NCBI GenBank assembly: GCA_030057915.1
Contig: JASGUC010000023.1
Coordinates: 1 to 50,675, forward strand
DNA length: 50,675 nucleotides
Reading direction: 5' to 3'
From: Pseudomonadota bacterium
GTDB taxonomy: Bacteria; Desulfobacterota; Syntrophia; Syntrophales; UBA8958
The translations under genes and the position numbers were made by a program. Within the stretch, counting starts at the first letter, position 1. Each line of letters begins with the position of its first letter. Positions 1 through 12,822 of this stretch are shown here, piece by piece. The notes beneath the pieces are model-generated. The model did no database searches. It saw only the letters and a list, made by a program, of their open reading frames with translations, and was not told the origin of the DNA.

Positions 1-641
1 ATCAAATAACTGCGCCCTGAAACACATGACCCATCAATGGATAAGTGCGCCTCAGCAACAACTTCCACCAACCACGGGGGGCATCTACAACCGATGAAAA
101 AGGGGGACAATCTCACCGATGCTAACATCCGAATCGCTTCGTCAAGAATATCGAGAACGTGAGCAGCAAATCTTTGGTCTTCTTCTTTTAGGACTGGAAT
201 CACAAAGTAATCAAAGAAACTGGCTTGAACTCTTTGCTGGCCAGCAGAACCTATCATAAAAGTCTCGGCCTTTTTGCGCAAAGCATCCATAGTGGTCCAG
301 TAATAGAGGAACCTGCTATTAACTCCTTTTATTGCTCTAAGAACATGAAATTCAGTAGATCCATAGCCCACCCCATTGATCAATCCAACAGCATGATATC
401 CCTTTCCATTTTCCATACAGGGCGTAATCTTTGCAAAAAGCACATCGCCCTCTTCAAACGGTGTGTAGCCCGAAGAAATGTCAACTTGCCTCCGAGTCTG
501 CGCGCCGATCAGCCGGCCTGATTCACTAACGTCCGCCATTGGAATAAAAGAAATTTCATCATATGGGGAAACTATTTTTGTCAATTGAGGATTAATCAAG
601 GCCAACTGAGAAATGGGTAGAAATGATGGCTTACTCGACAT
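1..641 (-). CDS. hsdS: Type I restriction specificity subunit HsdS, partial (runs off left edge)
   Basis: This is the DNA-recognition subunit that would direct the HsdM methylase and an HsdR motor to a bipartite target. The ATG at 641 overlaps the hsdM stop by 11 nt, which indicates translational coupling. About 170 residues read like a first target-recognition domain, with segments such as [29 protein letters not shown] and [15 protein letters not shown], and then the start of the central helix ([13 protein letters not shown]). From about position 128 leftwards the frame stays open but the residues no longer look like HsdS. The second recognition domain is therefore either outside the window or has been replaced by inserted DNA. 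The family is clear; whether the gene is intact is doubtful. Confidence 0.8.
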
Positions 642-3273
642 TGTATAACTCCGCAATTACATATCTAAGCTTTTGTTCCGCATTCCCTCGTTTTATATCT
701 ATTTCTTTTAAAGGTTTTGAGTACTTCCCCCACCAGTTCTCGAACGCCGCGACGACCTCCTGTCGGTGGGCGGCGATGTAGGATTCCAGGTGGGATGCGA
801 GTTTGCCTTTGAGGATGTCGAGGGCCAGCGCCGTGCATTCGGCGTCGGCCATTTTTTCCCGCGCCTCGCGCAACCGTTCGATGAAGCGCTGCTGGAGGAT
901 TCTGTATTGCCTCTTGGCGTTTTTGAGTTTTTCCAGAATTTCGTTGTGGGGGGCAAGTTTCTCTTCCAGTTGACGGATCTCTTCTTCCACGGGCGCGGTC
1001 CTGGCGGTGAGTTCTTCCAACTGCGCCCGAAGTGGCGCCGTGTCGGCGCCTGCTGCCTGGAAGTATTTGATGGAACCCTTTCTCTTTTGAGAGCCGCTTA
1101 ACATCTTGATCTTTGCCTTGTCTTCCTTGACGGCGTTTTTGAATTCCTTTAGTTGACTTTTCAACCTTTCCGCATAATTGGGACGCTCGTCTTCCTCGTC
1201 TTCCTCATCGGCCTCATCCTCATCCTCATCATCTTCCTGGGCCTCAAAGGCTTCCTTTTCCTGTTCCAGACCGCTGATCTCCTGTCGGGCCGCAACGAGT
1301 TCTTCCAGATATTCGGGCACAAGCCGAACCACCAGGGGATCTTCCTCCGGCTCGTAGTTGTTCTCCTTCCGATCCTCCATGGCGTCTTCGATGGTGTCGA
1401 TCCAGCCGTCGATAAGTCCGCCGAATCCCTGGGCAACCAGAGACTTGAGGTCATACTGCACCTCGCTCCACCAGGTGGCAAAGACGCCGGATACCTTGAA
1501 CCGGTCCAGAAGACCGCAAGGCGTCAGGGCATGATCAAAGGCAGAAAGAAGCGCGGCGCGCGCCGTCATCACATCGGCGGTTTGCGGCAGATTCTCCAGG
1601 ATGGCGATATGTTCAACCCACCAACTGTTAAAGATCGCAACCATACGGGCCTCTTTGTCTTTGAGACCGTCGTCGTTTTCGATACGCATTTTGATGTCCG
1701 CCCGTTCGGCAAGACCGGGATCGAAATCGTAGTAGTCCTTGTCGCGTTCTACAAAAATCACGGACGGCGAAAGGCTGTGGGCGTCAAAAAGAGGCTTTTT
1801 TTCTTCCACTTCCTGCCTGGGCACCCCGCCGACAAGATGCGCCCGCACATCATGCGGTTCCGGAGGCGGGGCGTTGTCCGCATAGCGCCGGATGTTGAGG
1901 TTCCAGTCGTTGGCCTCGATGGCGTTTTTGTTCACCACGGCGGCATAGCCGGAGATGTCCTGGAAGGCGCCGAAGGCAGAAACAATCTTTTCCACGTGCT
2001 CGGGCCGAAGGTAGTTCTGGGCGCGGCCCGCAAAGTACTCCCGATCGGCGTTTATGAAGAGAATCTTCCCTTTTCGCTCTGCGGGCTTTGCGCCTCTTGA
2101 CCGGCAGACCATGATGCAGGCCGGGATGCCCGTCCCGTAAAAGAGGTTGGGAGGCAGGCCGATGACCGCCTCCAAAATATCCTCTTCGATAATTCTTGTC
2201 CGGATCTTCTTTTCCTCGCCGCCCCGGAAAAGCACGCCGTGGGGCATGACCGTGGCCATGATGCCCCCGGGCCGCAATACGGAGAGCATGTGCTGGAGAA
2301 ACATCAGGTCCGCCTTCTTTCCCGTTTCCGGGCAGAAACCGTATCTAAAACGCTCGGGGAATTTCATTCCCGCCTTGACATAGTTCTGGCTGAAAGGCGG
2401 ATTGGTGATGACCCGGTCGAAGCGCATCAGCTCCCCTGCGTCAAGGTGCAGAGGGGTTGTCAAAACGTCTTCGTTTTGGATGTTGGCGTCGGGGATGCCG
2501 TGGAGGATCATGTTCATCTTGCAGATCGCCCAGACGCCGCCGTTGTTATCCTGACCGTAAAGAGCGAGGTTGTTGGGGTTGCCGCCGTATTCCTCCACAT
2601 ACTGTTTGGAAAGGATCAGCATACCGCCGGAGCCGCAGCAGGGATCGTATATCCGCATGCCCTCCTGAGGCTTGAGAATCCTGACCATGAGGCGCACCAC
2701 ATCCCGGGGGGTGTAGAATTCGCCGCCCTTTTTTCCGGCGGAGTCGGCAAACTCGCCGATGAGATACTCATAGGCCGCGCCGAGCAGGTCGGGAAACTCG
2801 AAGTCTTCGTTTCTCAGGCGATACTTGTTGAAATGGACGATGAGTTCCTGAAGTTTCTGATCGGGGATCTTGGTTTTGCCGACCTTCCTGGTAAAGTCGA
2901 TGTGGGCAAGGACGCCGTCGAGACCCTGGTTTACATGTTCGAGGCCCAGGAGCGCCTTGTTCAATTCGTCGCCGATATTTTGATGGGCGTGCTGAAGGGT
3001 CTCCCACCGGGATTCTTTCGGGACAAAAAAATTGGTGTAGCGGGCAGGGTCCTCCGCCCGTTTGACGGTCTCTTCTTCGGAGCGGCCCTTTTCGAGATTT
3101 GTTTTGATAAGCTTTTCATATTCTTCCTGAAACACATCGGAGCAGCGCTTCAGAAAAAGCATGCCGAAGATGTATTCCTTATACTCCGAGGCGTCCATCT
3201 TTCCCCGCAGGATGTCCGCAGCGGCAAAGAGATGATGTTCGAGTTTGGGAAGGGTCAGTTTTCTCACAGCCAA
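631..3273 (-). CDS. hsdM: Type I restriction-modification system methylase subunit HsdM
   Basis: This is an N6-adenine methyltransferase of 880 residues. It has an N-terminal helical HsdM domain (about 5-140), then the Rossmann methylase core with SAM motif I ([12 protein letters not shown], about residue 210) and catalytic motif IV NPPF ([10 protein letters not shown], about 290). The C-terminal half (about 500-880) is unusually long for HsdM, which is typically about 500 residues. It contains a very acidic Asp/Glu run near residue 690 and then predicted coiled coils. The gene starts 8 nt after radC and overlaps hsdS, so radC-hsdM-hsdS form one transcription unit. No hsdR lies in the window; it may be to the left. 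Confidence 0.95.
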
Positions 3274-3281
3274 CAGTCTCC

Positions 3282-3971
3282 TTACGTGAATATTTCCGGG
3301 TGGCTACGCCGCATGCTTAAAAAACCATCCCGTCCGATGATGATGTGATCCAATACGGCTATTTGAATCGACCTGCAGGCATTGACAAGCCCGGCGGTGA
3401 GTGCCTTATCCTGCTCACTGGCCGATGCGGGACCATTGGGGTGATTGTGGGCGAATATCAAGGCGGTGGCCTTGCGGCGCAGGGCCGCGTCAATCACCTC
3501 GCGCGCATAAATCGCCGATTCGTCCACCGTGCCGCGAAAAAGCGTATCCTCGCCGATCAAGTATTTTGACCGGTTGAGATGGAGGACGCGAAACTCCTCG
3601 CGCGGAAGGCTCTGCATGGCAGTTTTGAGATAAGCATAAAGGGCCTCCGGATTGTCAATGACAATGGTCTTATCCAAGGTCTGACGGGCTTGCCTCTTGA
3701 CGATCTCCATAGCCGCAAGGATCTGGGCGATCTTGGCTTTGCCGATGCCTTTGACCTGCAAAATATCTTCGCTTCTTGCCGAAAGGAGCCCCGCAAAGCC
3801 GCCAAAACGTTCAATCAATTCCCGGGCAAGTTCAACGGCGTTTTGACCTTTTTTCCCCGTGCGCAGCAAAATTGCCAAAAGGGCCGCATCGCTCAACGCT
3901 TCCGGACCTTTTGCCAGAAGCATTTCCCTCGGTCGTTCGTCATGGGGCCATTCTTTGATATTCGGTTTCAC
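3282..3971 (-). CDS. radC: RadC family JAB-domain protein
   Basis: This is a RadC/JAMM-like protein whose biochemical role is unsettled; it is often found with mobile and restriction loci. It has an N-terminal helix-hairpin-helix-like UPF0758 region ([28 protein letters not shown]) and a C-terminal JAB domain with the metal motif HNHPNG followed by SASEQD. I chose the GTG at 3971 ([16 protein letters not shown], 229 residues) because homologues begin just before the DERPRE block and AAGGCAAG lies upstream. An in-frame ATG at 4073 would add 34 residues that do not resemble the family. The gene is 8 nt upstream of hsdM and probably cotranscribed with it. Confidence 0.9.
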
Positions 3972-4119
3972 CTTGCCTTGCCACCTATATACTTCATTCT
4001 CGTAACATCTCTTATCCCTAAACTCAGCATATACCCCACCTTCGGCCTGGCAAATATGAGCGCGACAATTCAATCATTTCTTAAATTCCCGCACGTTCAT
4101 GGCTTTCCATTCAATTATG

Positions 4120-4818
4120 CTATTTATCCGAATAGGTATTGTAATAATGGTAAAAAAGTTTCAAAAGATTGATCCGCTCTTCCTTGTTTTTCTCCTTCTT
4201 TAAGGCAATCGATAAGGGAATGCGATAACCGGCGTCGGCATGACGGACATGAGGACAGAATTTCTCTTTCTGTCCCATCTCCCATAAGACTCGTTCAAAA
4301 AATTTCCTCTCGTCCTCGATAAACTTTGCCAGGGGGAATTCATCTTGGGGCAAATCTTCACAGCATGATTTCCAGTATTTCACGAAACTGACTTCATTTT
4401 CCTTGTAATATTCCTCAAAAGACATTCCGTTCTCAATGGCCATTTCCACCCATTCTGCATCAAATTGGTGAAGGGCGGCATTCTTGCCCAGAATGAACAT
4501 GGCATCTTCCGGTTCTGCGTCGGCTACATACCGGCACAAACCGATCTGCTCCGTCTCCGGTTCGGCGTCGAGCGCCAATAGATACTCGTCCAGCCAGCCG
4601 ACATATTCCGTAAACTTAGGGTCTTCAAGCGACAGGCTATACCCCATTGACCGACCGTTTTGATCAACAGGGACCTCAGCGAAACGATAATCCCTTCCCC
4701 ATTGCGCACAGTATGAAAACAGGATTCCCGTCACTTGGTCGTCCGAGCGATCGGGGTAGCATTCTTTTACTGTCTCGGAAAAGGTCGGTTTTTCTGTATC
4801 CGTACTTGGTGGTTTCAT
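4120..4818 (-). CDS. Hypothetical protein, unknown function
   Basis: I do not recognise this family. From the ATG at 4818 the product has 232 residues. That start is preceded by AGGAGGCGCTT, a strong ribosome binding site, so it is preferred over an in-frame ATG at 4869. The protein is soluble, acidic and rich in Trp, Tyr and Glu, with no signal peptide or membrane segment. It contains scattered cysteines (ECYPDR, YCAQWG, KSCCEDLPQDE, CPHVRHAD) but no clear metal-binding pattern. The tail is lysine-rich (KKEKNKEERINLLKLFYHYY). It lies upstream of radC on the same strand, separated by about 150 nt. Confidence 0.7.
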   Translation of the reverse strand: MKPPSTDTEKPTFSETVKECYPDRSDDQVTGILFSYCAQWGRDYRFAEVPVDQNGRSMGYSLSLEDPKFTEYVGWLDEYLLALDAEPETEQIGLCRYVADAEPEDAMFILGKNAALHQFDAEWVEMAIENGMSFEEYYKENEVSFVKYWKSCCEDLPQDEFPLAKFIEDERKFFERVLWEMGQKEKFCPHVRHADAGYRIPLSIALKKEKNKEERINLLKLFYHYYNTYSDK

Positions 4819-5062
4819 AAGCGCCTCCTCAAAATATACGAAATGGAAACTCAAGTGACCAAAATTCACGATTCAATACGTGAAGTATAGCCAAACTATC
4901 GACTGAGAAAATGGCGTATGCAATAAATTCTCTCGCTCATGGGGTCGTGAGATGAGCCCCTCCCCATTGGCAAGAGAAAAAACGTGTCCTTCCGGTAAGG
5001 CTGCGTGAAAAATTTTCTGGTGGCGGGTATGGTTGGTCATCAACCGCGAAGGAGGATGACCG

Positions 5063-5161
5063 ATGGAGAACGATTTTGGAACAAGCGTCCGCCCCAGTTT
5101 TGAGGATATTGAGCAACGATTTAGGCAATGGCGTGGGCATCGCAAACGGAATAGGCCATGA
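5063..5161 (+). pseudogene. Degenerate fragment, IS66-type transposition accessory protein (N-terminus)
   Basis: A 32-residue frame begins with ATG after GGAGGATGACCG, a good ribosome binding site. It reads SFEDIEQRFRQWRGHRKR, resembling the start of the small helix-turn-helix proteins that accompany IS66-family elements (IEQ.F..WR..R), then stops at TGA. No continuation is convincing before the DUF4143 gene begins at 5239 on the other strand. The interval 4873-5238 otherwise shows no gene. The assignment is inferred from a short motif. Confidence 0.4.
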
Positions 5162-5238
5162 TGAAATCAACGGAGGAAAAATCATCCTTGGTGTGCCCCC
5201 TGGAAACTACTCCAAAACGGTGTCCTCGGTGTAGGTCG

Positions 5239-6486
5239 TCATCTGGCCTCCCAGAGTCTCGATATGGGGACGGCATACAGTTTGTTCCCGAAGGGGACAA
5301 CGGCATCGCCGTCATACAGCACGACCCCGGCGGCAAAACTCTTTTGCGCGGCGTCCTGAAGTTTGCGCATCCCTCTGAAATCGTCGCCGGTCAACGTTGC
5401 CGTGGCCTTCACCTCAATTCCCGCCAGCAGTCCCCCGGATTCTAGGACGATATCCACCTCCACCTTGTCCTTGTCACGAAAATGGCTGAAGGAAACCGTC
5501 TCCTCATGCCAACTTCCCTGACGGCGCAGCTCCTGAAAAACAAACGTCTCCAGAATCCGCCCGAAAAGAGCGCGGTCTTCCCACAACATTTCCGCATCCA
5601 GGCTGAGGAGCGAACAGGCCAGCCCGGTGTCACCTATATGCAATTTGGGCGTTTTGATCAAACGGCTCATCCGGTTGCTGTGCCAAGGCGGCAGTTCCTC
5701 CAGTAGAAAAATCCTTGAGAGGAGAGTGACATACTCACGAATGGTCTGCCTGCTAACCTGAAACGGTGCGGCAATTTCGGACACATTCAAAAGGCAAGCC
5801 GTCTGGCCCGCAACCAGCGTCAGCAGTCGCGGCAGCGCATCCAGCGCACTGATGCGCGCCAAGTCTAGGACGTCGCGTTGAATCAGGGTATTGGCATAAT
5901 TCCGGTACCAGGCTGCTTGCCGACGTGCCGTGGCCCGCGCCAGCGCCGCCGGGTACCCACCTGCCGCCACCCGCTCCGCCAGTAACCGGCCCAGACGGCG
6001 ACCTGTCGCTCCGGGCTTGAAAGCAAAACCGAACAGGGCCGACAGAAAATCGGGCGTTCCTCCGGAGATCTCCACCTGAGACAGCGGATGCAGTCGCAAA
6101 ATCTCCATACGACCGGCAAGCGAATCAGCCAGATTAGGCACCAGTAGCACATTCGCCGAGCCCGTCAGGATAAACCGCCCCGGTTTTCTGCGCGCATCGA
6201 TTGCCGCTTTCAGTGAGGTGAAGAGTCCCGGCACCCGCTGTACTTCGTCCAAAATCACCCGCTCCGGCAGATCGGCGACATACCCCACCGGGTCCGCCTG
6301 CGCCGCCGCCCGCTGTACATCGTCGTCAAAGCTCAGATACTTGAATCCCTCCGCATCGCCGACCTGTCGGGCCAGCGTGGTCTTTCCGGACTGCCGCGGA
6401 CCGTGGATCAGCACGACCGGCGAATCGACGAGGGCCTCTATCACCCGGGGCTGGAGGCATCGGGGATATAAATTATTGTTCTTCAT
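5239..6486 (-). CDS. AAA ATPase with DUF4143 domain
   Basis: This is a P-loop ATPase of the AAA_14/DUF4143 type, 415 residues. The Walker A motif is GPRQSGKTT (about residue 30) and the Walker B motif is RVILDEVQ (about 97). TGSANVL follows as the sensor region, with a DUF4143 C-terminal domain after about 200 (helix-turn-helix-like segment VSRQTIREYVTLLSRIFLLEELPPW, read in two parts). It ends in a nuclease-like fold region containing DKDKVEVDIVLE and GIEVKATAT. Members of this family are common in accessory DNA and their cellular role is poorly defined. The gene stands alone between IS relics. A second, divergent family member lies at 43839. Confidence 0.9.
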   Translation of the reverse strand: MKNNNLYPRCLQPRVIEALVDSPVVLIHGPRQSGKTTLARQVGDAEGFKYLSFDDDVQRAAAQADPVGYVADLPERVILDEVQRVPGLFTSLKAAIDARRKPGRFILTGSANVLLVPNLADSLAGRMEILRLHPLSQVEISGGTPDFLSALFGFAFKPGATGRRLGRLLAERVAAGGYPAALARATARRQAAWYRNYANTLIQRDVLDLARISALDALPRLLTLVAGQTACLLNVSEIAAPFQVSRQTIREYVTLLSRIFLLEELPPWHSNRMSRLIKTPKLHIGDTGLACSLLSLDAEMLWEDRALFGRILETFVFQELRRQGSWHEETVSFSHFRDKDKVEVDIVLESGGLLAGIEVKATATLTGDDFRGMRKLQDAAQKSFAAGVVLYDGDAVVPFGNKLYAVPISRLWEAR

Positions 6487-6594
6487 GGGATTGTCTTAAG
6501 CACCGATCCCGTCCAATTGCAAGTTTTATATCCGTCCAATTGCAAGTTTGCCTTCGTCTAATTGTCGGCAGAAGCGAGAAATCTTTTGCTCACA

Positions 6595-6757
6595 CGTAGC
6601 GGTGGTGGAAATGACAACCGAAAATTGACCACCTGTGATAACCCAATTTTGACCACCCCTGGGCAAAGTTAAAGATCCATGATGGCGAAGATGTAATCAT
6701 CTGTCATCACCGGCCAGGAAAATGAAACGGAATCAGGTGGCGGCTTGCGCCGGAATA
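6595..6757. mobile_element. IS21-like terminal sequence relic
   Basis: Positions 6601-6660 carry repeated 'ttGACCACC' motifs (AAAATTGACCACC and AATTTTGACCACC), as seen in the multiple terminal repeats of IS21-family elements. Positions 6722-6757 then carry AAACGGAATCAGGTGGCGG and TTGCGCCGGAATAC. The latter stretch recurs in the same orientation at 8437-8474. No istA or istB gene is present. The interval 6487-6908 has no credible gene; it holds this relic and the 78-bp repeat at 6767. Confidence 0.5.
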
Positions 6758-6766
6758 CGCAACAAC

Positions 6767-6844
6767 GGCATCTTAAAGGACAACAAAAAGATTTGTCCTG
6801 GCTCGCTCATCCATAAACGTGGATACCCTGTGATTGGTTACAAA
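6767..6844 (+). repeat. 78-bp repeat, copy 1 (copy 2 at 50214-50291)
   Basis: By eye about 72 of 78 positions match the copy at 50214-50291, with no gaps. Both copies share one open frame reading ILKDN.KICPGSLI..RG and then PVIGYK, so it may be a fragment of a coding sequence, perhaps a transposase. It begins just after the IS21-like end at 6757. Confidence 0.75.
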
Positions 6845-6908
6845 AGATCTCGGCGATACTTCCGGAAAAGACATAACGACGCATTGGGTGACGCCAATGC
6901 ACCGTTAT

Positions 6909-7223
6909 TTAGGCGTGTTTCAGGCCAGGTGTGGCAGGTATAAAAGATCTGACCTCTTGCTTTACCTTTTCGCCGACAGAATTTCTTGCCACCTTCAAAT
7001 CATACGTTGTCTGAAGATTCAGCCAGAATTCCGGTGTGGTTCCGAAAAAAATGGAAATGCGCAGCGCGGTGTCGGCGGTAATAGAACGGGTACCGTTCAG
7101 GATGGCTGTTATCCGGTTAGCCGGTACGTGCAGTGCCTTGGCAAAGGCATTGGCGGTCATGTTGATTTCGGCAAGCTCTTCCTTCAGCACTTCGCCGGGA
7201 TGTATGGGGCGCATAGCGTTCAT
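6909..7223 (-). CDS. higA: HigA-family antitoxin (XRE-type HTH)
   Basis: This is the antitoxin of a type II toxin-antitoxin pair and, by family, the repressor of its own promoter. The 104-residue protein carries the hallmark N-terminus RPIHPGEVLKEEL and an XRE helix-turn-helix (MTANAFAKALHVPANRITAILNGTRSITADTALRIS), followed by FFGTTPEFWLNLQ. AAAGGAGGAACGCC precedes the ATG. The toxin gene lies 13 nt upstream, so the order is toxin then antitoxin, as is typical of higBA. Confidence 0.95.
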   Translation of the reverse strand: MNAMRPIHPGEVLKEELAEINMTANAFAKALHVPANRITAILNGTRSITADTALRISIFFGTTPEFWLNLQTTYDLKVARNSVGEKVKQEVRSFIPATPGLKHA

Positions 7224-7236
7224 GGCGTTCCTCCTT

Positions 7237-7515
7237 TCAATGATAATCTACGATTTCTACATTGTATGGACCGTCTTCCCGCCATTCGAAGCAAATGCGC
7301 CACTGTTGGTTTATGCGGATGCTCTGCTGGCCGGTCCGGTCTCCTCCCAGTGATTCAAAGCGATTACTGGGAAGATTCATCAGGTCCCCGATGCATGTGG
7401 CGCTGTCGAGTATCTGCAATCGACGCTCAGCCTGCTGCATTATAGATTGAAAACGGGGCACTCTTCCACCGTTGTAAAGCTTTTCGGTATGCTTGCAGGC
7501 AAATGATCGAATCAT
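7237..7515 (-). CDS. higB: HigB-family toxin (RelE-like mRNA interferase)
   Basis: This is a RelE/HigB-fold toxin of 92 residues, expected to cleave ribosome-bound mRNA. It begins MIRSFACKHTEKLYNG, contains AERRLQILDSAT, LMNLPSNRFESLGGDRTGQQSIRINQQWRICF (read in two parts) and ends YNVEIVDYH, all characteristic of the HigB group. The conserved GQ.SIRIN.QWRICF block carries the basic and aromatic residues expected at the active site. It is the first gene of a two-gene unit with higA. A promoter and inverted repeat lie just upstream. Confidence 0.95.
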   Translation of the reverse strand: MIRSFACKHTEKLYNGGRVPRFQSIMQQAERRLQILDSATCIGDLMNLPSNRFESLGGDRTGQQSIRINQQWRICFEWREDGPYNVEIVDYH

Positions 7516-8054: not shown

Positions 8055-8353
8055 TTATCCTGCAACAGATATACGAAAGGGTGATTGCGGCGCCATTTCC
8101 AACCGGCGCCGCGGCGGGAAATAGGGGGGTGATTTCCGGAGGCAAAACTTTTTGACCGTCGTCGATTCCACCTATAATTTCAGGTATTTTACCTATGCCG
8201 GCGCGCCGGCATTGGTTCGCCGCGACGAGGGGCGATACTCCCCCGGTCCGCTCAAGGAAGATAAAAAATACTCCCGCGCCGCCCTCCGGAAACGCTTGGC
8301 AACCACTCCTCCCGGTCCGCACGGCGAACAGCGGCGGCTCCATTATGGCGAGC

Positions 8354-8476
8354 ATTTACAGGTGGCGACTTGCGCCGGAATCGGGTGGCGCATTCCCCCG
8401 GAATTGGGTGGCGCATTCCCCCGGAATTGGGTGGCGGAATGAAACGGAATCAGGTGGCGGCTTGCGCCGGAATACA
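8354..8476. mobile_element. IS21-like multiple terminal repeats, overlapping the 3' end of the adjacent gene
   Basis: Short tandem units occur here: GGTGGCGACTTGCGCCGGAA, then GGGTGGCGCATTCCCCCGGA twice, then GGTGGCGGCTTGCGCCGGAA. Repeated terminal binding sites of this kind are typical of IS21-family ends. Part of it repeats 6722-6757 in the same orientation. The last codons and the stop of the gene at 8450-9577 fall inside this block. The interval 7516-8449 holds no intact gene apart from these relics. Confidence 0.5.
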
Positions 8477-9577
8477 CACAAGAACATTTACCATGTCCAG
8501 ATATTCTTTATACCGCTCCTGACTTGTATCAATTTCAACAGAAGAAATTGATGAAGTTATTGCGGCGGATCTGCCAGATTTTACCGCAGAAACAGCAGAA
8601 GCTGGTGAATCCAAAAATTCTATAAGCCTTCTGCCGTTCAAAAGTTCAATGCCCAAATGGTAATATTCAAGCCTTGCGGAAACATCAATGCCGCAATCCT
8701 TCTTCATATAACATAACGCAGCTTGCTTTATGTCATCGCGTATCCTATCAACCGAATAACGCCTTTCCATATGATGATTGTATTCCTCGGCTATCAGGTA
8801 AATCGAGGAAAGAAACGGCAAGGTTATTTTGTTGTTGATTTCTTTAAAATTATAGTTCTCATTATATGGACTGTATTTGATGCTTCCATGGAAGTCATGC
8901 TGTATCCACTCGTCCACTAAGTTTGTAGTGAATTCTTCGAGAGATACTTCTTTGAACGGCTCAATGTCCGATTGATCAAGAGCTGTTTTCAGGGATTCCA
9001 GGTTTTGCAGTGTGAAATTTTTCCCGGAATTGATGTAAAAATCATCCAGAATTCGGAAAAATCGTTTGGTGTGGGGGTCGTCCAGGTATTTGCGCCATTT
9101 TAAATTTTGTATCCATTGCGTAAGGCTGGCCACGGCTTCAACATGTTCAATTTTATGTTCAAGCTGAGTAAATCTCTGCAATACATTACCAGCAAGTTTT
9201 CTGATGGTTTCATAGATTTGCTGGTTTTCAATGCTGAGAGTATTGAGCTGGTTTTTAACGGTAATTATTGCGGCCGCCTGCAACATTTCCCGCTTGTTGA
9301 TAATCTGAATGAATGCGTGAGAAGCTTTTTGTACTTCGATGATCTGGTCAATGGTTGCTTTTTGCAGTTCATTATTTTTCTGAAAAATATTCCACATCTT
9401 TACAAGGGCAGGATTGTTTTGAGCCAATGCAAGGGCGTCTGAATTCTGTGGAATAGAAAACACACGAGAAGCGGCAATAGCCGTAGTCTCAAGGTTGAAT
9501 TGATTATCCTCGTTGGCATCAAGATAGTCGTTGATAACGCCATCGAACCTTCCATCCGTCGTATCGAAATTTTCCAT
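8450..9577 (-). CDS. Unknown coiled-coil protein, last gene of the five-gene cassette; C-terminus altered
   Basis: I do not recognise the family. From the ATG at 9577 the product is 375 residues; AGGA lies 8 nt upstream, and other in-frame starts are 9592 and a TTG at 9598. It is soluble and helical, with long predicted coiled coils across about 60-170 (NELQKATIDQIIEVQKA, LSIENQQIYETIRKLAGNVL). A mixed region around 190-330 contains NLVDEWIQHDF and HHMERRYSVDRIRDDI. The last residues (VCIPAQAAT) are read from IS21-like terminal repeats, so the natural C-terminus is probably lost. The start lies just past the stop of the 205-residue gene, indicating coupling. Confidence 0.75.
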   Translation of the reverse strand: MENFDTTDGRFDGVINDYLDANEDNQFNLETTAIAASRVFSIPQNSDALALAQNNPALVKMWNIFQKNNELQKATIDQIIEVQKASHAFIQIINKREMLQAAAIITVKNQLNTLSIENQQIYETIRKLAGNVLQRFTQLEHKIEHVEAVASLTQWIQNLKWRKYLDDPHTKRFFRILDDFYINSGKNFTLQNLESLKTALDQSDIEPFKEVSLEEFTTNLVDEWIQHDFHGSIKYSPYNENYNFKEINNKITLPFLSSIYLIAEEYNHHMERRYSVDRIRDDIKQAALCYMKKDCGIDVSARLEYYHLGIELLNGRRLIEFLDSPASAVSAVKSGRSAAITSSISSVEIDTSQERYKEYLDMVNVLVCIPAQAAT

Positions 9578-9594
9578 ATCATCTATCCTCATAA

Positions 9595-10212
9595 TCAAAT
9601 AAGGTCAATAATATCGTCTGCTGCTTTTTTAGCCATTGCCGTTTCAAACGATGTGCTCTTAAATTCCTCATCAAGCCTTCTTAATTCTTCGGCAAATCTG
9701 ACAAATTCCTTTTCTGCCTCAAAAAGCTCATTCTTTATCTCTCTTCTGAGTTCTTCCGTGATCTTCAGAGCGCTCACATATTCTTTCACCATCGCTTCTT
9801 GCTTCTGGTTAATCTGTCCCAACACAGCCACGAGATACGCCATTTGCATGGCAGCAGCTTTCTTTTCTTCGTCGGTACGAATAATTTCAGTCAGACCCTG
9901 AGTTGTAATGTTTGCATTAGGATTATATTGAGAACCGGTGATTTGTTCAAAAAGATCCTTTTTGACATCTAAGGGTATTTGATCATTTAAGGAAAGAAAA
10001 TTAGATGTTGCAGTATCAACGGCTTCTTTTGCCTTTTTGTTGGTTATTCTTGCCCACAAAGAGCTGATTTTGCCTTTGCAGAAATTGAAAAAGTCAGGGA
10101 TATTTTCCCGGATAAATTTCAAAACTTCACTTTTTGACCAATCACGAAGGTATTGCGGAATCATATCCCAAATTCGTCTTGCCCCATCAACAATAATGCT
10201 TAGATCAATCAT
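9595..10212 (-). CDS. Unknown coiled-coil protein, cassette gene 4
   Basis: The protein has 205 residues and no recognised family. AAAGGAGTTTATACC precedes the ATG. The N-terminus is amphipathic and aromatic (ARRIWDMIPQYLRDW, IPDFFNFCKGKISSLWARI), which could contact membrane or a partner. The second half is a long charged helix (EELRREIKNELFEAEKEFVR, FAEELRRLDEEF) with coiled-coil periodicity. No true transmembrane segment or catalytic motif is visible. It is followed within 3-18 nt by another coiled-coil gene, so the two may form a complex; that is inferred from adjacency and shared architecture. Confidence 0.75.
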   Translation of the reverse strand: MIDLSIIVDGARRIWDMIPQYLRDWSKSEVLKFIRENIPDFFNFCKGKISSLWARITNKKAKEAVDTATSNFLSLNDQIPLDVKKDLFEQITGSQYNPNANITTQGLTEIIRTDEEKKAAAMQMAYLVAVLGQINQKQEAMVKEYVSALKITEELRREIKNELFEAEKEFVRFAEELRRLDEEFKSTSFETAMAKKAADDIIDLI

Positions 10213-10249
10213 GGTATAAACTCCTTTTGAATAATAGAATAAAATCAGC

Positions 10250-10456
10250 CTACAACTTCTCCCACAACTTCCATTTCAGACATGTTGTTGCCGCCGTCGC
10301 CTTTCTGCCTTTCTGAGCGATACAGTCTGCATGCCCTGCGTCGGCATTAACATTGAACGGTTTATTGGCACGAAAAACGATTGTTCGCTTACCCGACCAG
10401 AAAGAACATGTCGCGCACTTCTTATCGGTCACTTTATAAACACCATAACCGGACAT
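10250..10456 (-). CDS. Small cysteine-rich protein, cassette gene 3
   Basis: The product has 68 residues from the ATG at 10456, preceded by AGGGGGTGGTTTG; an upstream in-frame ATG at 10483 is less likely. Four cysteines are arranged as CxxC (KCATCSFW), then ADCIAQKG and TTCLKWKLWEKL, compatible with a small zinc ribbon or knuckle. The Cys-x2-Cys...Cys...Cys-x-Lys-Trp pattern resembles small uncharacterised proteins found beside accessory genes. Its role is unknown. It sits between the beta-rich 147-residue gene and the coiled-coil genes. Confidence 0.7.
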   Translation of the reverse strand: MSGYGVYKVTDKKCATCSFWSGKRTIVFRANKPFNVNADAGHADCIAQKGRKATAATTCLKWKLWEKL

Positions 10457-10487
10457 CAAACCACCCCCTTTTTTTAGGCACAAATAT

Positions 10488-10931
10488 TCAATTCGCCACT
10501 GCTATCTCACCGGACACTAAATTTAATTCGCCCCTCAACAGGTATATTCTTTTTTCGACGGTGCTGTACTCGATGTGATATTCGATCTCCAGGTTTGATT
10601 TGATGTAGTCGCCCTTTTTGGGAATGGTTACGACGTATTTACCTTGGGACGGACTGGTTGATTTACATTTTAGCGCTTCAAGCTCGATGAACTTCTTGCC
10701 AAAATATTCATGTTCGCCCGCAAGCGTACTTTCCATGATGTCATCTGATATCTTGATCAACAATTGGGCGGCATAAGTATTTTCCTGATCGTCAACATCC
10801 TTGCCGATCAACGCCAGATACATGTATTTTTTAGGATCAATCGGAATGAAAAATAAATGGGTATAAATCGGCTGTCTCTTTAAGAACCCTTTGCGTTTTT
10901 TCACCACGCAATATCTAATGATCCCATTCAT
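10488..10931 (-). CDS. Unknown 147-residue protein, cassette gene 2
   Basis: No family is recognised. The start ATG at 10931 has AAGGG 5-9 nt upstream. The protein is basic at the N-terminus (VVKKRKGFLKRQP) and then alternates hydrophobic and polar residues in a way that suggests mostly beta strands (YMYLALIGKDV, GKYVVTIPKKGDYIKSNLEI). There is no signal peptide, membrane segment or clear catalytic motif. It begins 14 nt after the nuclease-like gene and is probably translated from the same message. Confidence 0.7.
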   Translation of the reverse strand: MNGIIRYCVVKKRKGFLKRQPIYTHLFFIPIDPKKYMYLALIGKDVDDQENTYAAQLLIKISDDIMESTLAGEHEYFGKKFIELEALKCKSTSPSQGKYVVTIPKKGDYIKSNLEIEYHIEYSTVEKRIYLLRGELNLVSGEIAVAN

Positions 10932-10945
10932 TTATGCCCTTCTCG

Positions 10946-11470
10946 CTAACCAAAAATGAGAGTGGTGGCACCGTTTCCCGTGTCTATTCTTTCATGAACT
11001 ATCTTTCTGCAGTTTTTCAATGCTCGCTCTACATTTTTGCTTTCGGATGCAGGGAAGGTATAACCCATTTGGATTTCGATGTTTTGTGATAATGAATCCG
11101 GCAAATCAAAGTTGATGCCGATCTTGCGGACGTAATCCGCTATCTGACCGCGAATGATAATTTCGTGGCCACCGACTTCCGGTGATACAAGTCCAGCCTT
11201 TTCACGGTTGGCCACTTCCATCCGGACCTTTTTAAACTCTTCCGTGTCGCTGTTTTGGATCTGTCGCCAACTGCTTGATTTTGGGCTTTCCGCAGGCGAT
11301 TTAATCTCGCCGATGATTGCCGTGTTTCCTTTGACTGCAATGTAATCAGGTTTATTGGCGTGCTGTCGTCCCTTGCCCTTAATATCCCTGTCGCCGTCAA
11401 AGTAACGATAACCATGCGCAGTAAGAGCGTATTCTGCTTTGGAATAAAATTCGCGTTTTCCGTCGGTCAT
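10946..11470 (-). CDS. PD-(D/E)XK nuclease-like protein, cassette gene 1
   Basis: The protein has 174 residues, with GAGGT upstream of the ATG. Residues about 38-58 read KPDYIAVKGNTAIIGEIKSP, the PD...(D/E)xK signature of restriction-like nucleases: PD, a short beta strand, then E-x-K at the end of the next strand. An upstream FYSKAEYALTAHGYRYFD helix could supply the conserved N-terminal acid. By family such proteins cut DNA, though some are inactive or only bind. It heads a five-gene unit whose other members are unrecognised. The nuclease call is an inference from one motif. Confidence 0.65.
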   Translation of the reverse strand: MTDGKREFYSKAEYALTAHGYRYFDGDRDIKGKGRQHANKPDYIAVKGNTAIIGEIKSPAESPKSSSWRQIQNSDTEEFKKVRMEVANREKAGLVSPEVGGHEIIIRGQIADYVRKIGINFDLPDSLSQNIEIQMGYTFPASESKNVERALKNCRKIVHERIDTGNGATTLIFG

Positions 11471-11777: not shown

Positions 11778-12113
11778 TTAGGCTGTAAATAACTTCACAA
11801 CCCCCCATGCCGCCAATCCCAAAAGTGAAATCGCGATAATTCCGACAAAGATCACCATCCATTTCATCAGTCCCAATAGTCTCGCAAAAGCCATGCTGAA
11901 ATTTTCAAGCCATTTTTGCAGCAGATTCAAGGTTGCAATCGCCGTGATTATTAAGTCGTCGATATAGCCTATCACCGGGAAATCAGGAACAATATCGACC
12001 GGTGACAGATCATAGAGTATGGCCAGCGCCAGTAAAACAATTGGGCCAACCAGTGAACGTTCCGAAGTTTGATCCATGACATCAATATCCGCCACTTCAT
12101 TTACTTGTTCCAT
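11778..12113 (-). CDS. DUF1232 (YkvA-like) small membrane protein
   Basis: The product is 111 residues from the ATG at 12113, preceded by AAGGAGGGATTGAGC; an upstream in-frame ATG at 12146 lies inside the previous gene and has no such site. The DUF1232 hallmark is present as SPVDIVPDFPVIGYIDDL (about residues 38-55), between hydrophobic segments (VGPIVLLALAILYDL before, MVIFVGIIAISLLGLAAWGV after). It is a two- to three-span inner-membrane protein of unknown function. It overlaps the SemiSWEET gene by 17 nt. Confidence 0.9.
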   Translation of the reverse strand: MEQVNEVADIDVMDQTSERSLVGPIVLLALAILYDLSPVDIVPDFPVIGYIDDLIITAIATLNLLQKWLENFSMAFARLLGLMKWMVIFVGIIAISLLGLAAWGVVKLFTA

Positions 12114-12414
12114 GCTCAATCCCTCCTTGATTAGTTGTTTTTTCATGATTTTTTTTATACCTGAACCACATCGCCACCAGCAAACCCGTCAGGGTCAGCG
12201 AAAGGCTGTTTCCAAAAATGAACACGATGTTTTTAACGTACAGTGCATAGGACAGGATGAGGGACATCCCGATCATCAAAATGGCCAGGTATGTCCCGCT
12301 CAGTCCTGTAATGCATTTGGTTCTGTAGGTCTTGATAAGCTGAGGAACGGAACTGGCGCACATGATGATTGACCCATTTGTCCCCAGTAATTGAAAAAAA
12401 TTTACGGTGTCCAT
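12097..12414 (-). CDS. SemiSWEET/PQ-loop family sugar transporter
   Basis: This 105-residue membrane protein has three predicted helices and the PQ-loop signature SVPQLIKTYRTK near residue 22. SLILSYALYVKNIVFIFGNS and LTLTGLLVAMWFRYKK follow. Bacterial SemiSWEETs dimerise and carry small sugars, but some members of the fold move other solutes, so the substrate is not assignable. GAAAGGAAAACGAATT precedes the ATG. It heads a likely three-gene unit with the DUF1232 gene and a 47-residue protein. Confidence 0.9.
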   Translation of the reverse strand: MDTVNFFQLLGTNGSIIMCASSVPQLIKTYRTKCITGLSGTYLAILMIGMSLILSYALYVKNIVFIFGNSLSLTLTGLLVAMWFRYKKNHEKTTNQGGIEHGTSK

Positions 12415-12482
12415 AATTCGTTTTCCTTTCCGCCAAAAATAAAAAACCTCCCTTGAAATGAAATATCCACTTCGTGGGAGGT

Positions 12483-12822
12483 TAACCCAAGTTCATGATC
12501 GTAAAAAATATTATTAGCATTATCGAGTGCTTACGAGCGGCGAAACGGTCGTTTGGGTACTACATATTTTTGTGAGGGGGCTCAGATGATCGTTTTTATT
12601 GTCTGGCCTGGCCGATGAGAAAGATGCAGGACATCATAAATGACCACATGCCGCCTCACTATAACAGAAAAGCACCCATGTCAAGCCGTTAATAAATATT
12701 TTGGTACTACAAATGGCTTTTTGGCCTCCGAGATAGCGTAACCTATTGATATAACTAACTTCACATTTTCAAAAACTGCCGATTTTCCCCTTTTTGGGGG
12801 TAAAAATCATGAACTTGGGCTA
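12483..12822. mobile_element. 340-bp element with terminal inverted repeats (MITE-like)
   Basis: TAACCCAAGTTCATGAT at 12483-12499 is matched in inverted orientation at 12806-12822, with 16 of 17 positions pairing. The AT-rich interior has no gene but repeats TTGGTACTAC/TGGGTACTACA. This fits a miniature inverted-repeat element or a deleted IS. The interval 12415-13271 has no convincing gene; it holds this element, the repeat at 12845, one arm of a 45-bp inverted repeat and a TIR element. Confidence 0.55.

What the first reader, a model, noticed from the sequence alone, without database searches (positions are those of the whole stretch)
8450..11470. Five-gene cassette headed by a PD-(D/E)XK-like protein, possible undescribed defence or conflict system
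Five minus-strand genes with short gaps and good ribosome binding sites follow a single promoter: nuclease-like, beta-rich 147-residue, Cys4 68-residue, and two coiled-coil proteins. None but the first is recognised. It lies between IS relics and near restriction, higBA and DUF4143 genes, a defence-island setting. An effector nuclease with sensing or oligomerising partners would fit.
Basis: inference. Interest (0 to 1): 0.75.

Follow-up and report, generated by a model that had tools for sequence, protein, structure and literature searches.

The report
Nuclease cassette on a mobile island
A small DNA-cutting-enzyme family and its partner genes ride, in changing combinations, in an exchangeable slot of mobile islands of Syntrophales-type bacteria that often begins with an undescribed structured RNA; the copy here is damaged at one end, and a defence or competition role is plausible but unproven.

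Summary
The five genes are real. g1-g4 evolve under strong purifying selection (dN/dS 0.04-0.15), and g1 has a confident PD-(D/E)XK-like fold with an invariant D..ExK motif. But they are not one fixed five-gene system. g1-g2-g3 is a conserved block in five loci, with decayed traces of g1 and g2 in a sixth. g4-g5 is a separate, rarer tail, present in one other intact locus. The window's g5 (375 aa) is a stump: its relative is 904 aa and ends in Sel1 repeats, and here it is cut off at IS21-like terminal repeats. A PQ-loop gene precedes g1 in every locus with enough upstream sequence.

In Syntrophales-type islands the PQ-loop gene usually follows a covarying ~110-nt RNA (promoter plus terminator, no Rfam match). 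What follows the PQ-loop gene varies: g1-g2-g3 with various tails, g1 plus a STAND NTPase, an LHH nuclease toxin with SUKH immunity, or TerB genes. So the finding is one load of a mobile, mostly conflict-type cargo slot.

Defence is the best single guess (about 0.45), with element maintenance next. No known family, no functional test.

The parts
10946..11470 (-). g1: 174-aa PD-(D/E)XK-like nuclease, motif D42...E55-x-K57, E7 also conserved
   Evidence: fold model pLDDT 88; structural neighbours; alignment of 9; dN/dS about 0.09-0.15
10488..10931 (-). g2: 147-aa protein, probably strand-rich, no known family
   Evidence: directly after g1 in L008, L010, L011; in L009 after a 322-aa insert; model poor, pLDDT 50
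10250..10456 (-). g3: 68-aa Cys4 protein (CxxC...C...C), probable zinc binder
   Evidence: relatives at 87-91%; diverged relatives in G134, G002, G104
9595..10212 (-). g4: 205-aa helical/coiled-coil protein
   Evidence: 64% relative between g3 and g5 in L027
8450..9577 (-). g5: truncated gene; N-terminal about 363 aa of a protein that is 904 aa with C-terminal Sel1 repeats in L027
8346..8478 (.). IS21-like tandem terminal repeats (23-bp spacing) that end g5; a 98% copy of the outer 41 bp lies at 6721-6761
11778..12146 (-). DUF1232 membrane protein, upstream member of the array
   Evidence: Pfam PF06803 33.9 bits; same place in L008 and, displaced, L010
12097..12414 (-). PQ-loop membrane protein, header gene of the array
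   Evidence: Pfam PF04193 32.9 bits; upstream of g1 in W, L008, L010, L012 (end fragment), L013, L014, L021, L023
12437..12484 (-). terminator-like hairpin just before the PQ-loop gene, remnant of the RNA leader region
   Evidence: matches leader of L013/L021; folds at -20 kcal/mol, z -3.7

Best explanation
g1-g5 are one cargo load in a variable slot of mobile genomic islands of Syntrophales-type Desulfobacterota. Shown here: g1 has a PD-(D/E)XK-type fold and motif; g1-g2-g3 form a conserved block; the tail behind it is exchanged between islands; a PQ-loop gene precedes it; the slot often begins with a structured RNA; and the window's copy is truncated in g5. Inferred: the block is an intracellular conflict (defence) module. 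g1 would be a DNA-cutting effector, held or guided by the small partners g2 and g3 (g3 through a zinc site). The helical g4 and the Sel1-repeat protein g5 would act as sensing or oligomerising platform, a role that a STAND NTPase would fill in G335. On invasion by a phage or competing element the platform would release g1 to cut DNA. In this genome the module is probably impaired, because g5 has lost its Sel1 part.
For: Fold and motif of g1. Conserved order g1-g2-g3 in W, L008, L009, L010, L011 and a decayed g1-g2 fusion in G528. g3-g4-g5 order in L027. Purifying selection. Tail exchange: 212-aa membrane protein, 560-aa protein, STAND NTPase 18 nt after g1, and g4-g5. Conflict genes in the same slot elsewhere. 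A second Cys4 + coiled-coil pair in G134 lies next to a NucS/MmcB-like PD-(D/E)XK gene in a TA-rich array.
Against: No match to any PADLOC, NCBIfam or PHROGs family. The family is rare: 4 of 155 genomes of the order. Other genes of the slot look like membrane or stress genes (PQ-loop, DUF1232, TerB, bPH), not defence. The g2 structure could not be modelled. No infection or toxicity data exist. Structural matches are all under Z 8.
Confidence: 0.45

Rival explanations
1. Element maintenance: g1 is a resolvase- or excision-type nuclease that serves the island's own replication, excision or transfer, and g2/g3 are its cofactors. The varied tails are unrelated passengers.
For: Structural neighbours of g1 include Holliday junction resolvases and the fdxN excision factor XisH, Z 6.4; viral neighbours are VRR-NUC and resolvases. 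Loci lie in elements with serine or tyrosine recombinases and primase-polymerase genes.
Against: Most islands of this kind lack g1 (RNA in 11 genomes, g1 in 4), so it is not a core function. g1 travels with tails typical of conflict systems.
Confidence: 0.25
2. Toxin-immunity pair: g1 is a DNase toxin and g2 (or g3) its antitoxin or immunity protein, kept because loss kills the cell.
For: Tight g1-g2 coupling (14-16 nt) and conservation. The slot elsewhere holds nuclease toxins with SUKH immunity.
Against: g1 occurs without g2 in L013, L014 and L021. g1 has no secretion or delivery region, and g2 matches no immunity family.
Confidence: 0.15
3. No joint function: small membrane, stress and nuclease genes collected side by side by recombination at gene borders.
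For: Mosaic content with scars: partial repeat of the g1 end in L012 and L021 and of the g2 start in L009. g1 occurs with several different downstream contexts.
Against: The g1-g2-g3 order is kept at dS up to about 1.4 with dN/dS near 0.1.
Confidence: 0.15

Closest known systems
PD-(D/E)XK nuclease superfamily (small stand-alone members: Hjc, XisH, VRR-NUC, RPA0323)
   Same: core topology helix-strand-strand-strand-helix-strand and D...ExK motif
   Different: no sequence match to any Pfam family above cut-off (best AHJR-like, 14.1 bits against 26.1)
Modular defence hotspots of genomic islands, described for Pseudomonas in PMC12629846 (title and start of abstract seen)
   Same: conserved frame with exchangeable conflict cargo
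   Different: here a conserved RNA and a PQ-loop gene head the slot, and the hosts are Syntrophales-type Desulfobacterota
SGI1 with its self-encoded small RNA (PMC9299015, abstract)
   Same: a mobile island that carries its own small RNA and a terminator near the promoter
   Different: sgm-sRNA is needed for transfer and lies by oriT; the RNA here heads a cargo slot, no relation between the two was tested, and its role is unknown
STAND/NACHT-type defence NTPases paired with effectors
   Same: in G335 a STAND NTPase gene starts 18 nt after the g1 homologue
   Different: the window has no NTPase; its tail is the helical g4 and the Sel1-type g5

Membership tests
PD-(D/E)XK nuclease superfamily | alpha-beta-beta-beta-alpha-beta core | tested here: met
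   AlphaFold2 model pLDDT 88.4, pTM 0.85; nearly all of the top 27 structural neighbours are PD-(D/E)XK nucleases, Z 5.0-6.8
PD-(D/E)XK nuclease superfamily | D on strand 2 and E-x-K on strand 3, conserved | tested here: met
   D42, E55, K57 invariant in 9 sequences, at the start of strand 43-47 and at the end of strand 50-56
PD-(D/E)XK nuclease superfamily | metal-dependent DNA cleavage | not testable with these tools
   needs a biochemical assay
Known anti-phage systems (PADLOC-DB 2023) | profile match of the components | tested here: not met
   no match for g1-g3 and g5 at E 10; g4 only 14.4 bits to PtuB1. The full g5 relative matches PtuA1 at 19.1 bits, only over a 41-residue repeat stretch
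Known anti-phage systems (PADLOC-DB 2023) | protection against phage | not testable with these tools
   needs plating tests
XisH/XisI excision controlling factors | XisH sequence family, XisI partner | tested here: not met
   no XisH or XisI Pfam match in g1-g5 at E 10; fold resemblance Z 6.4 only
Polymorphic toxin-immunity modules | toxin domain with delivery region, plus known immunity family | tested here: not met
   g1 is a 174-aa single domain; no immunity family in g2 or g3. Such modules do occupy the slot in L046 and L049
Known structured RNAs (Rfam 15) | leader RNA reaches a family's gathering score | tested here: not met
   only a group II intron in L021 is found

The most novel reading that the evidence does not exclude
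A new kind of modular island: an undescribed structured RNA and a PQ-loop gene mark a slot that swaps conflict cargo. One cargo is a new defence system with a PD-(D/E)XK effector (g1-g2-g3) and interchangeable sensor tails (Sel1-repeat pair, STAND NTPase, membrane proteins).
Probability: 0.3. Interest if true: 0.75.

Novelty: new variant of a known kind. Interest (0 to 1): 0.5.

Why it matters
If right, it gives a searchable marker (an RNA of about 110 nt plus a PQ-loop gene) for a cargo slot in uncultured syntrophs that holds unknown conflict genes, and a small nuclease module whose partner swapping would show how effectors are joined to different sensors. It also warns that the window's own copy is broken, so tests must use an intact relative.

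Tried and rejected
Profile searches of all five proteins in Pfam, NCBIfam, PADLOC and PHROGs gave nothing above cut-off. tblastn of g1-g4 in plasmids and of g1 and g3 in phages found nothing; g5 found one weak plasmid hit. Viral contigs: five scans, no relative. g2 fold prediction failed (pLDDT 50). A wide transfer to Bacteroidota and Ignavibacteria, suggested by bin names, was set aside: L012 matches the Syntrophaceae MAG fen_1165 at 94-100% and a contig of the L010 bin matches a Syntrophales genome at 98%, so misbinning is likely. Solved-structure sequence searches gave nothing useful. Literature searches found no description of this island type; that library holds only part of the literature.

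Full report
WHAT IS THERE. Five minus-strand genes lie at 11470-8450 with gaps of 14, 31, 37 and 17 nt. The stretch is 40-44% G+C against about 65% in the chromosome to its right. It is a single copy in its genome. g1 (174 aa), g2 (147 aa), g3 (68 aa, four invariant cysteines) and g4 (205 aa) are complete. g5 is not: the window frame gives 375 aa from ATG 9577, whereas the relative in L027 is 904 aa with a long run of Sel1 repeats. Similarity stops near 8490 and the frame then runs into repeats spaced 23 bp (8346-8478), whose outer 41 bp recur at 6721-6761. I read these as IS21-type ends (inference from the repeat pattern).

THE GENES ARE REAL AND SELECTED. Synonymous changes far outnumber replacements in g1, g2, g3 and g4 (dN/dS 0.04-0.15). 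For g5, dS is saturated against its relatives, while dN is 0.09-0.15.

g1 IS A PD-(D/E)XK-LIKE PROTEIN. No Pfam family reaches its cut-off (best AHJR-like, 14.1 bits). A model from nine relatives has pLDDT 88 and the order helix, three strands, helices, strand. D42, E55 and K57 are invariant. Nearly all of the first 27 structural neighbours are PD-(D/E)XK nucleases: RPA0323, XisH, Hjc, FokI, PaqCI, R2 endonuclease, Can2-type, VRR-NUC, McrC. All Z values are below 8, so this supports the superfamily and not any one member. The match to viral models (VRR-NUC, resolvases) agrees.

WHO TRAVELS WITH WHOM. g1 relatives were found in further loci of several genomes, one of them a probable chimera or recombinant (L012). 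g2 and g3 follow g1 in L008, L009, L010 and L011. In G528 a decayed copy has the g1 core fused in frame to the g2 end, then a bPH protein, then a broken g5. L027 gives g3-g4-g5 in the window's order. In 155 genomes of the order g1 is in 4, g2 in 3 (all among those 4), and g4 only here. Close g3 relatives sit only with g1-g2, but diverged ones exist in three further genomes. In place of g4-g5 stand a 212-aa membrane/coiled-coil protein (L008, L009, L011), a 560-aa membrane protein (L010), or a 730-aa STAND NTPase 18 nt after g1 (G335). g1-g2-g3 is thus a core with exchangeable tails.

THE LARGER FRAME. A PQ-loop gene lies upstream of g1 in every locus with enough sequence. In L013, L021, L010 and L008 the array starts with a conserved non-coding element: promoter-like TTGACA/TATATT, a folded stretch and an intrinsic terminator. 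A covariance model finds it in 11 of 155 genomes of the order, one or two copies each, and in no genome other than the window's own among 257 sampled from the phylum. In an alignment fitted to the model 10 of 29 pairs change on both sides against 4.5 in shuffles. No Rfam family matches. Downstream on the same strand a PQ-loop gene follows in 10 of the 11 RNA loci that have enough sequence (L062 is the exception). The window has lost the RNA but keeps the last terminator hairpin at 12437-12484. Its genome keeps two copies (one strong, one weak) on contig C64, next to an 85-aa gene of the same array family.

WHAT ELSE FILLS THE SLOT. In L046 a MORN-repeat protein with an LHH nuclease end and a SUKH immunity protein; in L049 a colicin-DNase/WHH protein and SMI1/KNR4; in L045 and L060 TerB-like proteins. 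RHH regulators on the other strand and recombinases or a primase-polymerase mark the islands as mobile.

INDEPENDENT ECHOES. In G134 a g3-like Cys4 gene overlaps the end of a coiled-coil gene and lies about 150 nt before a NucS/MmcB-like PD-(D/E)XK gene, in an array with several toxin-antitoxin pairs and a repeated, strongly folding spacer that resembles an integron attC site (attC is inference). On Selenomonas plasmid pSRC1 a weak g5-like gene is followed by a Sel1-repeat gene.

HOW IT PROBABLY WORKS. Effector nuclease g1, small partners g2 and g3, and a helical sensing or oligomerising tail, carried by mobile islands against phages or rival elements: about 0.45. Maintenance nuclease of the island: 0.25. 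Toxin-immunity: 0.15. No joint function: 0.15. The step from fold to defence is inference throughout. The window copy, with g5 cut, may be non-functional.

LIMITS. Most relatives are metagenome bins; bin names for L009-L012 are doubtful. Loci are few and related, so counts are not independent events. All Z values are modest, and g2-g5 have no usable structural model.

Noticed in passing
L013 5726-5868; L021 7505-7641; L010 1810-1964 and 5446-5588; L024 4153-4290 (minus); L044 5656-5754 (own genome, contig C64): Structured RNA of about 110 nt with its own promoter and intrinsic terminator, covarying helices, no Rfam match, at the head of PQ-loop arrays in Syntrophales-type islands.
   Followed up: partly
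L046 8156-11193 and L049 3963-5419: Nuclease toxins (MORN+LHH; colicin-DNase/WHH) each followed by an SMI1/KNR4-type immunity gene, in the same kind of slot.
   Followed up: partly
L075 4110-6461: Integron-like array in a Syntrophales genome: coiled-coil gene overlapping a g3-like Cys4 gene, attC-like spacer (53-nt core repeated at 2859 and 5329), then a NucS/MmcB-like nuclease and several toxin-antitoxin pairs.
   Followed up: partly
L007 11382-14132 (G335): g1 homologue followed after 18 nt by a STAND NTPase, near a PD-(D/E)XK restriction-type gene, a WYL-type regulator candidate and a large serine recombinase: looks like a two-gene nuclease-STAND unit.
   Followed up: partly
L012 1188-1277, L021 about 9310-9396, L009 560-710: Partial repeats of the g1 end and of the g2 start beside the intact genes: scars of recombination at gene borders.
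   Followed up: no
window 3-4073: Type I HsdM gene with an HsdS-like gene at the window edge, and a RadC gene just upstream of HsdM.
   Followed up: no
L076 (reverse strand) 500-7362 and L077 815-10741: g3-like Cys4 genes beside bPH_2 and TM2 genes, in L077 with PP2C-like, kinase, TPR and dynamin-type genes; L076 has three paralogous genes of 356-525 aa.
   Followed up: partly
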